Source: an uncultured Bacteroidia bacterium
GTDB taxonomy: Bacteria; Bacteroidota; Bacteroidia; Bacteroidales; F082
Length of the DNA stretch: 55,394 nucleotides
Direction of reading: 5' to 3'
Assembly (NCBI GenBank): GCA_902799345.1
Contig: CADBZW010000016.1
Span: 1 to 55,394, forward strand
Part shown: in pieces, positions 19,172 to 23,280 of the stretch
Position numbering within the stretch: position 1 is the stretch's first letter
Layout: each line of letters opens with the position of its first letter
Translations under genes and position numbers: made by a program
The notes under the pieces: generated by a model
Database searches by the model: none
Told to the model about the DNA's origin: nothing
The model's input: the letters and a program-made list of their open reading frames with translations, nothing else

Positions 19172-20209
19172 TTATTGAATCAGGCCAGTAGCAGTAGCCA
19201 GGTCGATAGAGACATTGGTGTAGTAACCAGGGATGGAGATATATCTCTTGTCAGCCGGGACTTTCACATCTCTTGAACCATCGGTGTAAGTCAGAGTCAC
19301 AGTGAAGTTATCCATCAAAGCACCTGGGCGGAGAGGTATGAGGAAGAACTTGTAGTTACGATCGATGGTAACACCATTGGCGGCGGAGCAGTCGAGGGTG
19401 ACGCTATAACCAGTGCCGTTGGGCATATAACCAATCTCATGGAGTCTGTTATTCATTGCAGTCCAATAATCATCGGCGTTTCCATTAGCCTTATAATTGA
19501 CGCCAAGTTGTTTCATGGCATCGAGGTCGGCGCTCTTCAGTGCAGGAATCTCGATTGACATGCTGCCGGTGAGGTGCATGTTACTGTCGGTGATGGTAAC
19601 GCTGGACACCTTCTTACCGCTGTTGTTGCTATCCTTAACTCTCACATTGATATAGCCAAAGATATGCTTGAGGTTAGCGACAACATTAGGTTCAATGACA
19701 TCGCAAGTGGCGGCACCCACAAAGCCCCTAGGATCCATGAAAATCATGCCTGCACGAGCCGTGTTGGCAAACAAATCCGTCACATAGGTCTGGGTCTCAC
19801 CCACATTGAAATAGGCGCGATTGCCTTCTGTGATTTGAGTGGTGGCCTTCGAAGCTGGATAGAAAGCGAAGAAACCTTCACTGCCTTCTTGCATAGAGGC
19901 TCCTGAGAAATGAGCTTGAGAAGCACCCGTAATACCGGATTCAGCAGTAAATGCGGCAGCCTTCGACTTGGTGTAATCCTGGTCGATGCTGTAAATCATT
20001 ATCTCATCACCCTCATACCATTTCATTTGGCCAGCAATCATGTCGATGTAGGCCTTTGACTCGTCGAGACCCGATTCGCCTTCAATGGCTGGCAACGTAA
20101 AATCGAACGAAGCGACCGTCTTGGCATTGTCCTTTTTGCAGGACGTGGCACCGATTGCCAGCAAGGCAACCATGCTCATCATACCGATAATTTGACTTAC
20201 TTTTTTCAT
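19172..20209 (-). CDS. Fimbrillin-like lipoprotein
   Basis: This encodes 345 residues. MKKVSQIIGMMSMVALLAIGATSC ends in a lipobox TSC (Cys24). The body shows features of FimA/Mfa-type fimbrillin-like proteins: a beta-rich domain with KWYEGDEIMIYSID near the N-terminus, then FFAFYPASKATTQ and later NVRVKDSNNSGKKVSSVTI. In Bacteroidales such lipoproteins are processed and polymerised into fimbriae, or act as surface adhesins. The gene lies 51 bases downstream of the 44-residue peptide gene and has no clear promoter of its own, so the two may be cotranscribed. No full fimbrial operon (anchor, tip or adhesin genes) is nearby. Confidence 0.72.
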   Translation of the reverse strand: MKKVSQIIGMMSMVALLAIGATSCKKDNAKTVASFDFTLPAIEGESGLDESKAYIDMIAGQMKWYEGDEIMIYSIDQDYTKSKAAAFTAESGITGASQAHFSGASMQEGSEGFFAFYPASKATTQITEGNRAYFNVGETQTYVTDLFANTARAGMIFMDPRGFVGAATCDVIEPNVVANLKHIFGYINVRVKDSNNSGKKVSSVTITDSNMHLTGSMSIEIPALKSADLDAMKQLGVNYKANGNADDYWTAMNNRLHEIGYMPNGTGYSVTLDCSAANGVTIDRNYKFFLIPLRPGALMDNFTVTLTYTDGSRDVKVPADKRYISIPGYYTNVSIDLATATGLIQ

Positions 20210-20260: not shown

Positions 20261-20395
20261 TTAAGCCCAAGGATTATCGCCACCAGGTGTTTCACCGCTA
20301 TGAACATCGGCACCGCTAATCATCAGCACGGTAGGCATTTGCATTTCGAACACTTCAGCTACAGGAGCTTCGTAAGTTTTGTTCATCTTTTTCAT
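20261..20395 (-). CDS. 44-residue peptide, candidate precursor of a modified peptide
   Basis: An ATG at 20395 opens a 44-codon frame ending in TAA at 20261. The N-terminal half is MKKMNKTYEAPVAEVFEMQM and the C-terminal half is PTVLMISGADVHSGETPGGD followed by NPWA. Tyr8 and Pro11 form the Y-x-x-P spacing known from lasso-peptide leaders, where a PqqD-like domain binds; a PqqD-like gene lies 1.3 kb upstream. The tail is rich in Gly, Ser, Thr and Asp and ends GGDNPWA. The upstream A-rich sequence is typical of Bacteroidota start regions, and a -7 box lies at 20475-20482. Similar short Gly-rich peptides ending in NPWA-like tails are, from memory, common in Bacteroidales. A precursor role is inference. 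Confidence 0.7.
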   Translation of the reverse strand: MKKMNKTYEAPVAEVFEMQMPTVLMISGADVHSGETPGGDNPWA

Positions 20396-20474
20396 TTCGT
20401 TTTAGTTTTTTAATTGATTGATTTATTGTTAATTACTTTATTTTCTTACTTTCTTTTCATGCCATTTGACGCTG

Positions 20475-20482
20475 CAAAAATA
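20475..20482 (-). promoter_or_regulatory. Promoter -7 box (TATTTTTG) for the 44-residue peptide gene
   Basis: The minus-strand sequence TACTATTTTTGCAGC fits TAnnTTTG. A TTTC string about 20 bases upstream is a weak -33. The leader would be about 80 bases. Confidence 0.5.
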
Positions 20483-20537
20483 GTAAATTATTTCATACGC
20501 ACGAAAGAATTTTATTTTTTTGAAATTAATTCCTCTA

Positions 20538-21650
20538 TTAATGGTCGCCCAGCTTTCTTACTTTGCCAAACATCTGCCTCAATGAGGAACCCATTTCCCT
20601 GAATGCCACCGAAGGAAACACGCGGACACGATAGAAGAAATCAACAAAGATGCCGAAGAATGAATGCATCCAACGCATCAGTCTGCTCTTGGGTCGGCGC
20701 TGCTTGAAACGGCTGTGGCGTTTGAAGTTGCCCACTTCCATCACTTTATGGTAAAGCCTTTGCGCCGTGCGCCGACACTGCGCGTCAAAGAACGGCATCT
20801 CGGCTTCGGGTAGGCCAAGTTGCTCCACCATCAGATAGCCGAAGGCCTGCCAAGGTTTCATCAGGTGCATGTCAGTCAACCACAGTCTCAATTTTTCCAA
20901 GTCAAGCTGGCCATGATAGGCATGCAAGGCCACGGCCACGTCTGAGATTTGTCGCCAACCCACACCCGAGGTCAGGAGATGGTGCCAAGCATGATAGAAG
21001 GTGTAAAACACCACGAACTCCTTAGAGGGAAGAGTGATTTCGAGACCTTCATAGTCAACACGTTGCGTATGATCATGCAGTCCATCACGCTCGATGGCGG
21101 TGTAAATCCTGGCCACCTTGGGGTCGTCCATGTCGGCACTCACACGGTGTATCTCCATGGGATATTGGCCGAACTCTATATTGTATTGGTGGCCTTTATC
21201 AACTTCTTCTCCCCAGTTGTAGCCGCCCGGCAAGGTGCGCAACAACCGGCAGGCTTCATGGAAATGATCGAGGCCCACGTAGAGGTCGATGTCGCCAAAC
21301 TGCCGCAGGCTCGGGTTGGGATAAAACATGGCCAAGCCAAAACCCTTAAGCAGCACCGGCTCAATGTCGTGTTGGTGCAACAAGGTCACCGCCGATGCCA
21401 GTATTCGCCTCAGATTCATCTGGTTGATCAAGCTGCCGCGCATCACCGCTTGCATCTTGTCAAGCATGGCCTCAGAAGGACGGTTGTCGCCCGCCATCCG
21501 CGAAGCCACACCACACAACAACGCCTGGTTGGCGTGATGCTTGGCCACTTTCATCACACCGTTCCAGTCAATGGGGCCGTCGATAGCGACAGGCGTGTCC
21601 CATAAGGCGGAGCGAAGCAGGGCAAAATATTGGGTTTCGGAGGCGGTCAT
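20538..21650 (-). CDS. Nucleotidyltransferase family protein (NTP_transf_5-like)
   Basis: This encodes 370 residues. The core motif is LLKGFGLAMFYPNPSLRQFGDIDLYVG, with Lys102-Gly103 and the metal-binding GDID at 119-122. This is the pattern of the nucleotidyltransferase superfamily members found in peptide-modification and polysaccharide gene sets. A helical C-terminal half (AWHHLLTSGVGWRQISDVAVAL) completes the family length. The start at 21650 (MTASETQYFALL) is preferred because the longer frame overlaps the PqqD gene and AAAAGGT lies just upstream. The substrate is unknown; nucleotidylation of a peptide or partner protein is a guess from context. Confidence 0.8.
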   Translation of the reverse strand: MTASETQYFALLRSALWDTPVAIDGPIDWNGVMKVAKHHANQALLCGVASRMAGDNRPSEAMLDKMQAVMRGSLINQMNLRRILASAVTLLHQHDIEPVLLKGFGLAMFYPNPSLRQFGDIDLYVGLDHFHEACRLLRTLPGGYNWGEEVDKGHQYNIEFGQYPMEIHRVSADMDDPKVARIYTAIERDGLHDHTQRVDYEGLEITLPSKEFVVFYTFYHAWHHLLTSGVGWRQISDVAVALHAYHGQLDLEKLRLWLTDMHLMKPWQAFGYLMVEQLGLPEAEMPFFDAQCRRTAQRLYHKVMEVGNFKRHSRFKQRRPKSRLMRWMHSFFGIFVDFFYRVRVFPSVAFREMGSSLRQMFGKVRKLGDH

Positions 21651-21667
21651 GACATACCTTTTATTAA

Positions 21668-21937
21668 TTAATCCTCGATGACACCCGCCTTGTTCCATGT
21701 CTGGAGCAAAGCCGTCACGTCTTTCTCAGCCACTTCCATGGATATACCATATTCATCCACAAGGAGTTTTGCCAGCGCCTCGGTGTCAAATGTCTTGCCT
21801 TCCACCGCTTCCCAAAGGAAAGCAGCCGTTTCGTTCATGGAAATCATCTGGTTGGCACCCATGACTTCAAGTCCTTCGGCAACAAGGATGTATTCTTTGC
21901 CCAACTGGCGCAATCTATAACCCTTTTTCGTTTTCAT
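21668..21937 (-). CDS. PqqD-like peptide-binding protein (RRE fold)
   Basis: This encodes 89 residues. The sequence shows the PqqD winged-helix pattern: a beta-hairpin start (YRLRQLGKEYILVAEG), MNETAAFLWEAVEGKTFD, LAKLLVDEYGIS and a final helix EKDVTALLQTWNKAGVIED. PqqD-like domains bind the leader of ribosomally made peptides and hand it to modifying enzymes. Here it lies between a peptidase gene and a nucleotidyltransferase gene, all on the minus strand. The gap to the peptidase gene is 66 bases of AACTGAACA-type repeats. The precursor is not in the same frame cluster but 1.3 kb downstream. Confidence 0.85.
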   Translation of the reverse strand: MKTKKGYRLRQLGKEYILVAEGLEVMGANQMISMNETAAFLWEAVEGKTFDTEALAKLLVDEYGISMEVAEKDVTALLQTWNKAGVIED

Positions 21938-21950
21938 ATAGTATAGATTT

Positions 21951-22008
21951 AAAGATTCAAAGATTTAACTGAACAACTGAACAACTAAACAACTGAACAA
22001 CTGCTAAC
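21951..22008. repeat. AACTGAACA low-complexity tract inside the cassette
   Basis: Units AAGATTCAAAGATTTAA and then AACTGAACAACTGAACAACT repeat between the PqqD and peptidase genes. The same kinds of units occur before hemW (7111-7146) and before rocD (28119-28165). Confidence 0.7.
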
Positions 22009-22414
22009 TAAGTTTCCTATGTATTTTCAACAAGTATCTCCTCATGGGCAAGAGATGGCGCCACAGCCAGGCTTTCTTGGGTTTGAGGTGTCGTCCGTCG
22101 TGAACGATTTCAACCACCGTGCCCATGACATCGTCCGCAGCGACCTGCTCAGTGCCTTCCAAGTTACCATCACCCATCAACGTCATCTTTTCTCCATCAA
22201 CGGCATACACGCGATGAAGTATATGTTTGCCATGGTACTCTACCAGCACAATGTCGCCCACTGCCACCCTGTCTTTCTTCAGCAGATACACCTGGTCCAC
22301 GCCTCCTTTGATGAAAGGCAGCATGCTGATGCCTTGTGGGACTAGGGCTATCACCTTACCGTCTTTCAGCGCATCCAAATCCCTATGTACCACGACATTC
22401 TCCTGTTCCATCAC
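22004..22414 (-). CDS. S24/S26-type peptidase with Ser/His dyad
   Basis: This encodes 136 residues. The signature PQGISMLPFIKGG places the nucleophile at Ser30 (motif G-x-S-M-x-P). The second catalytic position, normally Lys in bacterial leader peptidase, is His67 in KHILHRVYAV, as in the SipW/eukaryotic type; the GDIVLVEYHG before it and MGDGN after it match the S26 fold. There is no strong transmembrane segment at the N-terminus, so it is probably soluble or peripheral. The start overlaps the stop of the kinase-like gene by ATGA. Leader cleavage of the peptide at 20261-20395 is a plausible role but is inferred. Confidence 0.82.
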   Translation of the reverse strand: MMEQENVVVHRDLDALKDGKVIALVPQGISMLPFIKGGVDQVYLLKKDRVAVGDIVLVEYHGKHILHRVYAVDGEKMTLMGDGNLEGTEQVAADDVMGTVVEIVHDGRHLKPKKAWLWRHLLPMRRYLLKIHRKLS

Positions 22415-23280
22415 TGCGAGACGGTTTTATAGCAAAGCCAAGCCGCCTCGGCATCTGGCAAACAATCAAGGGCATAGCAGGGCACCGTACCGACTACTTT
22501 TTCGTTGGTGGCATGCAAACCGTCAGCCATCTCCTTGATGAAGCGATAGCCCGAGAACGAGACGTACATGGCCGCATAAGCCTCCACCAGCGACATCCTC
22601 CTGATGGTATTCTTCTTGGCCTGACGCAAGTTGACGATGGCACCTACCGGAACCTCAATATTCTGGTAACAAGGCGTCTTGCCGCTCCAAGGCGAGCCGA
22701 AGACGTGCACCTCCCCATCCTCCATGACACGCAGCACTGGGTTGTCGTCGTTCAATAGGGAACATCCTTCTATATTATTGATCCACAGTTGACTATGTGT
22801 ACTCTTACCCGTACCGCTCTTACCCAAAAACAGATATCCTTTGCCGTCTTTCACGGTCACCGATGAATGCATCAATAAAGTGTTTTTGCGTGCCGTGGCG
22901 AAGGCAAACATCAGCATAAGCGAGGTCCCTAAAGAAAAACGGATGCTACCCAAGATGCGGAACTTGGCCTCATAGAAGGTCTTGTCGGTCAAGAGATAAG
23001 CCCTCACCGGTGCTTCAAGCAGAGGCGCCATTTCCATCAGCCATTGTCCACGCCATTCGTATAGCTCGATACGGGGCATGTCGGGCCCTTCGCAACTCAC
23101 CGTAACTTTCTGTTTGTCGGAGGTGTCAGGCATGGCATCCAACAATTCGGCCGTAAAGAGGCAGTCGCTGGCATCCACGCAAACAAACGGCTCGTAGGGA
23201 CCCATCTCATTCCAAGCCGCGTCATTGTCGGGCATGACAACAGCGAACTTGTGACCTGCTACTCGATACGTTTTTTTCAT
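22411..23280 (-). CDS. HPr-kinase-like P-loop protein
   Basis: This encodes 289 residues. The P-loop GKSGTGKST is at 153-161, preceded by LLMHSSVTV (HprK-like His-Ser motif near 138), followed by LLNDDNPVLR at about 176 and GSPWSGKT at about 196. These are features of the HprK/P-type serine kinase C-terminal fold, but the N-terminal HprK sensor domain is replaced by an unrelated region (1-130). Stand-alone HprK-like proteins occur in lasso-peptide and related gene sets, where characterised members phosphorylate the peptide. The start at 23280 lies 17 bases after the TATCTTTG box; the longer frame upstream is ruled out by that box. It heads the cassette. Confidence 0.82.
   Translation of the reverse strand: MKKTYRVAGHKFAVVMPDNDAAWNEMGPYEPFVCVDASDCLFTAELLDAMPDTSDKQKVTVSCEGPDMPRIELYEWRGQWLMEMAPLLEAPVRAYLLTDKTFYEAKFRILGSIRFSLGTSLMLMFAFATARKNTLLMHSSVTVKDGKGYLFLGKSGTGKSTHSQLWINNIEGCSLLNDDNPVLRVMEDGEVHVFGSPWSGKTPCYQNIEVPVGAIVNLRQAKKNTIRRMSLVEAYAAMYVSFSGYRFIKEMADGLHATNEKVVGTVPCYALDCLPDAEAAWLCYKTVSQ

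What the first reader, a model, noticed from the sequence alone, without database searches (positions are those of the whole stretch)
20261..23280. A candidate peptide-modification cassette: HprK-like kinase, S26-type peptidase, PqqD-like protein, nucleotidyltransferase and a short peptide
Seen in sequence: a P-loop HprK-like gene, a Ser/His S26-type peptidase overlapping it by ATGA, a PqqD-like gene, a nucleotidyltransferase with GDID, then a 44-codon peptide gene, all on one strand. Known: PqqD-like domains bind leaders of ribosomally made peptides; HprK-like kinases can phosphorylate lasso peptides; nucleotidyltransferases also occur in such sets. Here the ATP-dependent cyclase and transglutaminase-like protease of lasso loci are absent, so the set is not a standard lasso cluster. 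Inference: a peptide made here could be bound by PqqD, modified (phosphorylation or nucleotidylation) and trimmed by the peptidase.
Basis: partly seen in the sequence, partly recalled or inferred. Interest (0 to 1): 0.88.

Follow-up and report, generated by a model that had tools for sequence, protein, structure and literature searches.

The report
Phosphopeptide genes tied to adhesin-like lipoproteins
A gut bacterium carries a small enzyme set that very probably phosphorylates and trims short peptides, and in related species such peptide genes are scattered over the genome, nearly always in front of a gene for an adhesin-like surface lipoprotein, which hints at the unknown purpose of this recently described kind of peptide.

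Summary
In detail: HprK-like kinase, S26 peptidase, PqqD-type leader-binding protein, NTP_transf_5 protein and a 44-codon peptide lie on one strand. The peptide is real: 11 of 11 intact genus loci have it, with a conserved YxxP leader and a hypervariable tail. It is not a lasso locus: the B2 protease is not found in the genome and no full-length cyclase-like protein either (genome 91% complete). The closest known kind is the linear polyphosphorylated peptides (LPP, PMC13381572, May 2026), stated there to be restricted to Bacillota. New here: an LPP-like set in Bacteroidales; precursors encoded in trans (of 99 genus genomes, 34 of 34 with the full-type kinase have the peptide, 1 of 65 others); 55 of 58 dispersed peptides examined precede a fimbrillin/adhesin-like lipoprotein gene; in three genomes enzymes and peptide are missing between lnt and a retained lipoprotein gene. 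A Ser 19 residues after the leader Tyr (70 of 89 peptides) matches a known phosphosite spacing. Likely mechanism: RRE-guided Ser phosphorylation, then S26 leader removal; the role of the lipoprotein is inferred. Nothing was tested chemically.

The parts
22411..23280 (-). HprK-like peptide kinase (LppK-like), 289 aa
   Evidence: H138, G153, G156, G158, K159, D178, D179 invariant in 22 rows, S160 in at least 90%; same residue classes as the BsfK motif in PMC10368454 (passages); profile matches solved HPr kinases 5.9e-7
22004..22414 (-). S26 (signal-peptidase-like) leader peptidase, 136 aa (LppS-like); no membrane segment apparent by eye, no predictor run
   Evidence: S30, H67, D82 invariant in 20 rows; profile best PDB match SEC11A 2.1e-8; model pLDDT 89, Foldseek hits LexA/UmuD, SipA, SpsB
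21668..21937 (-). PqqD-type RiPP recognition element (LppB-like)
   Evidence: Pfam PqqD 2.4e-17; N35 and D73 in at least 90% of 22 rows, aligned with the Asn and Asp of LppB that are 37 residues apart, as N33/D70 are
20538..21650 (-). NTP_transf_5 nucleotidyltransferase-fold protein (LppN/PsmN-like), 370 aa from ATG at 21650
   Evidence: PF14907 1.7e-35; K102, G103, R116, D120, D122, H168, H220, D237 invariant in 20 rows
20474..20482 (-). TATTTTTGC, Bacteroidota -7-like promoter element (TAnnTTTG; consensus recalled) upstream of the peptide gene
   Evidence: TANNTTTGC within 160 bp upstream in 11 of 11 cluster peptides (shuffle mean 0.09) and 8 of 20 dispersed ones (shuffle mean 0.31)
20261..20395 (-). 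44-aa precursor peptide, YxxP leader, variable core
   Evidence: found in 11 of 11 intact genus loci; third-position excess
20315..20317 (-). codon for Ser27, 19 residues after the leader Tyr8; predicted phosphosite
   Evidence: Ser at Tyr+19 in 70 of 89 unique peptides, 57 of 57 of the Cys type; spacing as in BsfA
19172..20209 (-). fimbrillin/adhesin-like lipoprotein, partner gene
   Evidence: kept in the 11 intact loci; profile matches 4k4k putative cell adhesion protein 5.4e-5; model pLDDT 80, best Foldseek hits Bacteroidales cell-adhesion and fimbrial proteins

Best explanation
This is an LPP-like RiPP pathway in Bacteroidales. The PqqD-type protein binds the YxxP leader of short precursor peptides; the HprK-like kinase, helped by it, phosphorylates (perhaps polyphosphorylates) a Ser near the leader/core border (Ser27 in the window peptide); the NTP_transf_5 protein may decorate that phosphate further; the S26 peptidase removes the leader, releasing a short acidic linear peptide. 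One enzyme set serves several precursors: one beside it and others scattered over the genome, nearly all of those examined translated just upstream of a fimbrillin/adhesin-like lipoprotein gene. Shown by comparison: gene set, peptide reality, co-gain/loss of peptide with enzymes, peptide-lipoprotein pairing. Inferred: phosphorylation, cleavage, action on the dispersed peptides, and that the mature peptide works with the lipoprotein at the cell surface.
For: Peptide in 11 of 11 intact loci with conserved leader and variable tail. In 99 genus genomes the full-type kinase (E<=3e-99) is in 34 and the peptide (E<=0.01) in those same 34 plus G160 (Fisher 9e-26, not corrected for kinship). Five kinase-negative genomes keep a close lipoprotein homologue and 0 of 5 have a peptide before it; in three of them it lies 269-362 bp from lnt against 3196 bp in the window, so enzymes and peptide are missing together. 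20 of 21 and 35 of 37 (17 other genomes) dispersed peptides precede such a lipoprotein gene. Catalytic residues invariant. RRE carries the LppB Asn/Asp pair. Ser at Tyr+19 in 70 of 89. S26 and lasso B2 do not co-occur in 20 order genomes (11 B2 only, 7 S26 only, 2 neither). Among 119 order genomes the peptide is in 4, all 4 with S26 (21 have it). LPP biochemistry in PMC13381572 (abstract, sections 6, 7, 12, 16, 35 and passages seen).
Against: No chemistry. No ABC exporter was seen in the window set, although LPP sets have one. 19 of 89 peptides lack Ser at Tyr+19, among them several cluster peptides. The cleavage motif of LPP (FET/A) is absent, so the cut site is unknown. Outside the genus 17 of 21 S26-positive order genomes gave no peptide match, and among 71 distant loci only 4 had a peptide within the fetched stretch. 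NTP_transf_5 was found in 18 of 80 loci only. G160 has YxxP frames without a detected kinase. Four lipoprotein genes in kinase-positive genomes have no peptide before them (L267 second, L270, L271, L272 first).
Confidence: 0.78

Rival explanations
1. The short frame is a regulatory upstream peptide that controls translation of the lipoprotein gene; the enzymes are unrelated neighbours.
For: Most dispersed peptides examined end within about 70 bp of the lipoprotein start.
Against: The peptide is found with the enzymes (34 of 34 against 1 of 65) while the lipoprotein persists without it in 5 of 5 enzyme-free genomes looked at. Its leader carries the RRE-binding YxxP motif and the genus genomes have a PqqD-type protein beside one copy.
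Confidence: 0.08
2. A lasso peptide pathway whose cyclase and B2 protease lie elsewhere in the genome.
For: Lasso loci of other Bacteroidales families use the same kinase and NTP_transf_5 kinds and YxxP-type leaders.
Against: PF13471 in 0 of 17 genomes of this family searched; in G000 Asn_synthase matches only 55 of 354 positions at 4.8e-4. One relative, G182, does have a full Asn-synthase-like protein, on another contig than its peptide set. The genome is 91% complete, so a gap cannot be excluded.
Confidence: 0.04
3. Peptide and enzymes form an LPP-like pathway, but the lipoproteins are bystanders that share operons with the peptides by descent or regulation only.
For: Lipoproteins of the same family occur without peptide and enzymes; the two kinds in G079 (family f80) are not related to the genus lipoproteins.
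Against: The pairing holds for 55 of 58 dispersed genus peptides examined and, with lipoproteins of another family, for both peptides in G079; duplicated pairs travel together (for example L230, L244).
Confidence: 0.25

Closest known systems
Linear polyphosphorylated peptides (LPP; lppA/K/B/S/D/N), Popov et al., Nat Commun 2026, PMC13381572 (abstract, sections 6, 7, 12, 16, 35 and passages seen)
   Same: Signal-peptidase-I-like leader peptidase, discrete RRE with the Asn/Asp pair, HprK-like kinase, NTP transferase, no cyclase; precursor with conserved YxxP leader and variable tail; conserved Ser after the leader.
   Different: Bacteroidota rather than Bacillota (the authors call LPPs restricted to Bacillota); leader consensus differs (YEAPKAEVIE..QGVLCAS type, no HQ or FET; Tyr to Ser 19 instead of 18); no exporter beside the window set; precursors in trans; pairing with lipoprotein genes; RREs not nested with LppB in the tree.
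Phosphorylated lasso peptides (paeninodin, pseudomycoidin, Bsf): PMC9266682 and PMC10368454, passages seen
   Same: Kinase kind, NTP_transf_5 kind, PqqD-type B1, YxxP leader; Ser at Tyr+19 phosphorylated in BsfA.
   Different: No B2 protease (PF13471) and no macrolactam synthetase; S26 peptidase in place of B2.
Fimbrillin/FimA-Mfa-type adhesins of Bacteroidales (3t2l, 3sy6, 3ufi, 4k4k)
   Same: Lipoprotein with a similar predicted fold (best TM by target 0.47-0.57) and sequence profile (4k4k, 5.4e-5).
   Different: Below Pfam significance; always or nearly always preceded by a YxxP peptide in the kinase-positive genomes examined; other C-terminal domains in paralogues (Lcl_C, Fib_succ_major, MucBP).

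Membership tests
LPP | SpI/SipW-like leader peptidase with Ser/His/Asp | tested here: met
   S30, H67, D82 invariant in 20 rows; SEC11A match
LPP | Discrete RRE with Asn/Asp that hold the YxxP motif | tested here: met
   N35/D73 align with LppB residues 37 apart; PbaB1 lacks both in the same output
LPP | HprK-like kinase and NTP transferase in the set | tested here: met
LPP | No macrolactam cyclase in the set (linear product) | tested here: met
   none among the ORFs beside the set; genome:
LPP | MsbA-like exporter in the set | tested here: not met
   no such gene beside the window set; in the distant loci an ABC-exporter family is in 48 of 71 (one member checked by Pfam). Not searched elsewhere in the genome
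LPP | Precursor motif YxxPxVLxHQxIxFETxxS | tested here: inconclusive
   YxxP and a later Ser met; V-L, HQ and FET not
LPP | RRE inside the LPP clade of Bacillota | tested here: inconclusive
   FastTree of 93 short sequences: LppB not nested in the S26-linked Bacteroidales clade; one LPP sequence only
LPP | Polyphosphorylated Ser3 and leader cleavage shown by mass spectrometry | not testable with these tools
   needs bench work
Lasso peptide | B2 transglutaminase-like protease (PF13471) | tested here: not met
   0 matches in G000 and in 0 of 17 family genomes
Lasso peptide | Asn-synthase-like macrolactam cyclase | tested here: not met
   G000: only a 55-position weak match
Fimbrillin-like lipoprotein (20209-19172) | Lipobox Cys and fimbrillin/adhesin fold | tested here: met
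   Cys24 invariant in 28 and 18 rows; Foldseek top hits adhesion/fimbrial proteins, moderate TM; Pfam silent

The most novel reading that the evidence does not exclude
Bacteroidales run a genome-wide phosphopeptide system: one central kinase/RRE/S26/NTP-transferase set matures many short peptides, each made next to its own fimbrillin-like surface lipoprotein, and the matured phosphorylated (or phospho-glycosylated) peptide binds, caps or is displayed by that adhesin, so that the peptide is a swappable part of the adhesin. This would give LPP-type peptides their first function.
Probability: 0.35. Interest if true: 0.87.

Novelty: new variant of a known kind. Interest (0 to 1): 0.76.

Why it matters
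LPPs were published in May 2026 as a Bacillota family of unknown role (PMC13381572, section 12). An LPP-like set in Bacteroidales, found in many ruminant- and herbivore-gut genomes, widens the family by a phylum. The pairing of dispersed precursors with adhesin-like lipoproteins gives a concrete, testable idea of function and a rule for finding precursors that cluster-bound genome mining would miss. It also shows a RiPP layout, one maturation set with many precursors in trans each tied to a partner gene, that is easy to overlook.

Tried and rejected
Rejected: lasso pathway; chance frame; defence system (PADLOC best matches 0.0043 and weaker). Led little further: Pfam and NCBIfam give nothing for the peptide and no lipoprotein family; searches for an earlier description found the LPP paper and lasso papers but none on this set in Bacteroidota; that library holds open-licence PMC papers only. 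PMC7533575 and PMC10352776 (passages), PMC12636315 and PMC13289728 (passages) describe other RiPPs. The RRE tree could not tell shared descent with LppB from parallel origin. The peptide profile is weak outside the genus. Rows dropped: L061 and L124 lipoproteins were left out of alignment A8; one peptide without Y..P (L243) and duplicates were left out of the 89 (94 hits); for the RRE tree two thirds of the distant loci above L152 were thinned out.
Full report
WHAT IS THERE. On the minus strand of the window lie an HprK-like kinase (23280-22411), an S26 peptidase (22414-22004), a PqqD-type protein (21937-21668), an NTP_transf_5 protein (21650-20538), a 44-aa peptide (20395-20261) and a 345-aa lipoprotein (20209-19172). 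The genome holds one PqqD and one NTP_transf_5 match. The lipoprotein was outside the finding but belongs to the picture.

IS THE PEPTIDE REAL? In one search, 15 genus genomes (own included) have PqqD. I fetched all 14 others. Eleven loci (window, L061-L068, L070, L071) keep the order hprK-s26-pqqd-ntp5-[peptide]-lipoprotein; L074 has the genes reordered, L069 and L072 have pqqd-hprK-s26, L073 pqqd-hprK and a distant ntp5. All 11 ordered loci have the peptide: start MKKMNK.YEAPKAEVIE, end variable and mostly acidic. Differences between the 11 over ten leader codons fall mainly on third positions (110/53/246). A TANNTTTGC element, recalled as the Bacteroidota -7 box, lies 73-94 bases upstream in all 11.

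NOT A LASSO LOCUS. PF13471 (lasso B2) is absent from all 17 genomes of this family that I searched and present in 11 of 20 genomes of other families of the order. Asn_synthase gives only a weak 55-position match in the own genome; G182 has a full-length protein of that kind on another contig, G179, G181 and G193 partial ones. In the 20 other-family genomes, B2 and S26 exclude each other: 11 B2 only, 7 S26 only, 2 neither, 0 both (Fisher 4.6e-4). These 20 were picked for strong PqqD matches.

ENZYMES LOOK ACTIVE. S30/H67/D82 of the peptidase (20 rows), H138, the P-loop Gly/Lys and D178/D179 of the kinase (22 rows), K102, R116 and the D120/D122 pair of the NTP transferase (20 rows) are invariant. 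The peptidase model (pLDDT 89) resembles LexA/UmuD and signal peptidases SipA and SpsB. The RRE has the Asn and Asp that align with LppB of the LPP system, with the same 37-residue distance as N33 and D70 in the paper, while PbaB1, which prefers WxxP, lacks both (PMC13381572 passages).

PRECURSORS IN TRANS. A profile of 29 peptides found matches in 35 of 99 genus genomes, up to 8 in one. A kinase profile found the full type (E <= 3e-99) in 34 of the same 99 and a divergent type in four more. The 34 are exactly the peptide genomes minus G160; none of the four divergent-kinase genomes has the peptide. So 34 of 34 against 1 of 65 (Fisher 9e-26; related genomes, so not a true probability). G160 has YxxP frames in tandem on a 4-kb contig and no kinase found: an exception.

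PAIRED WITH LIPOPROTEINS. I looked at 21 dispersed peptides in 20 fetched loci from nine genomes: 20 are followed on the same strand by an SC(N/K)K-type lipoprotein frame, most within about 70 bp; in L136 twice a gap of about 335 bp; L135 has none. With a profile made from these, 35 of 37 dispersed peptides in 17 other genus genomes are followed by such a gene within 375 bp; L240 is not, L257 ends with its contig. Two peptides in G049 (family f50) also precede lipoproteins, weakly matched by the profile (4e-7, 3e-4), and two in G079 (family f80) precede lipoproteins that the profile does not match; G101's peptide-like frame has no lipoprotein after it. The lipoprotein profile matches the solved adhesion protein 4k4k (5.4e-5), and the model of the window lipoprotein (pLDDT 80) finds Bacteroidales cell-adhesion and fimbrial proteins first, with moderate TM-scores. 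Paralogues carry other tails: Lcl_C, Fib_succ_major, MucBP.

LOST TOGETHER. Five kinase-negative genus genomes (G167, G162, G274, G261, G153) have a lipoprotein homologue at E <= 3e-37. None of the five has a YxxP peptide before it. In G162, G274 and G261 the lipoprotein gene lies 269-362 bp from lnt, where the window has 3196 bp holding the five genes: enzymes and peptide are missing as one block while the lipoprotein stays. In kinase-positive genomes four lipoprotein genes looked at have no peptide (L267 second, L270, L271, L272 first).

PHOSPHOSITE. In 89 unique peptides Ser stands 19 residues after the leader Tyr in 70, and in all 57 with Cys two places before it (the set includes the 29 profile rows). 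In BsfA (Tyr-17, phospho-Ser3; PMC10368454 passages) the distance is also 19; in LppA (Tyr-16, Ser3; PMC13381572) 18. By that geometry the cut would fall near Leu16/Cys17 after Tyr, but the LPP cleavage residues are not conserved, so the site is open.

WIDER SPREAD. In them the peptidase is found in 77, PqqD in 71, NTP_transf_5 in 18, a peptide in 14 and the lipoprotein in 10 (stretches are up to 13 kb and many are cut by contig ends). In 48 of the 71 more distant loci an ABC-exporter-like family is present (one member checked). Among 119 genomes of the order, 21 have S26 at 1e-6 and 4 the peptide, all 4 with S26 (7.5e-4). Outside the genus most precursors are thus still unknown.

WHAT IT IS. 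The enzyme set, leader motif and absence of a cyclase match the LPPs of PMC13381572, whose authors showed RRE-dependent SpI cleavage, multiple phosphates on Ser3, and no known role, and who state that LPPs are restricted to Bacillota. It works like an LPP pathway; strict membership is open because the exporter is not beside the window set, the motif differs, and the RRE tree does not nest LppB with this clade. I therefore call it a new variant: LPP-like, in another phylum, with precursors in trans and lipoprotein partners.

Noticed in passing
L075:2160-7999 and 25 further loci (L076-L079, L081-L097, L099, L100, L116, L118): Another PqqD-type locus of the order: ATP-grasp protein, PLP-dependent decarboxylase and a urea transporter-M23 fusion are each found in 26 of 26 loci. 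The decarboxylase begins with a (Y/F)ERPxI motif much like an RRE-binding leader, as if PqqD bound the N-terminus of a whole enzyme.
   Followed up: partly
L276:456-2506 (G160): YxxP frames in tandem on a 4-kb contig in a genome where no kinase of this type was found.
   Followed up: partly
L265, L270, L271 upstream of the lipoprotein; L140:7688-7939: Where the peptide is missing before a lipoprotein gene, a roughly 90-aa secreted-looking protein with a PxGSG...hydrophobic...KK/RK tail stands there instead.
   Followed up: no
L135:3666-3962 and L136:3645-3962: A 98- or 105-aa protein with a hydrophobic stretch stands directly after the peptide, before any lipoprotein gene.
   Followed up: no
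L150-L220: An ABC-exporter-like family in 48 of 71 distant kinase/S26 loci, a likely peptide exporter.
   Followed up: partly
L105:5127-5267, L115:8836-8988, L112:7468-7599, L108:12452-12565: Short frames with (W/Y)xxP-like leaders in loci of other Bacteroidales families whose genomes have the lasso B2 protease; look like lasso precursors beside the same kinase and NTP_transf_5 kinds.
   Followed up: no
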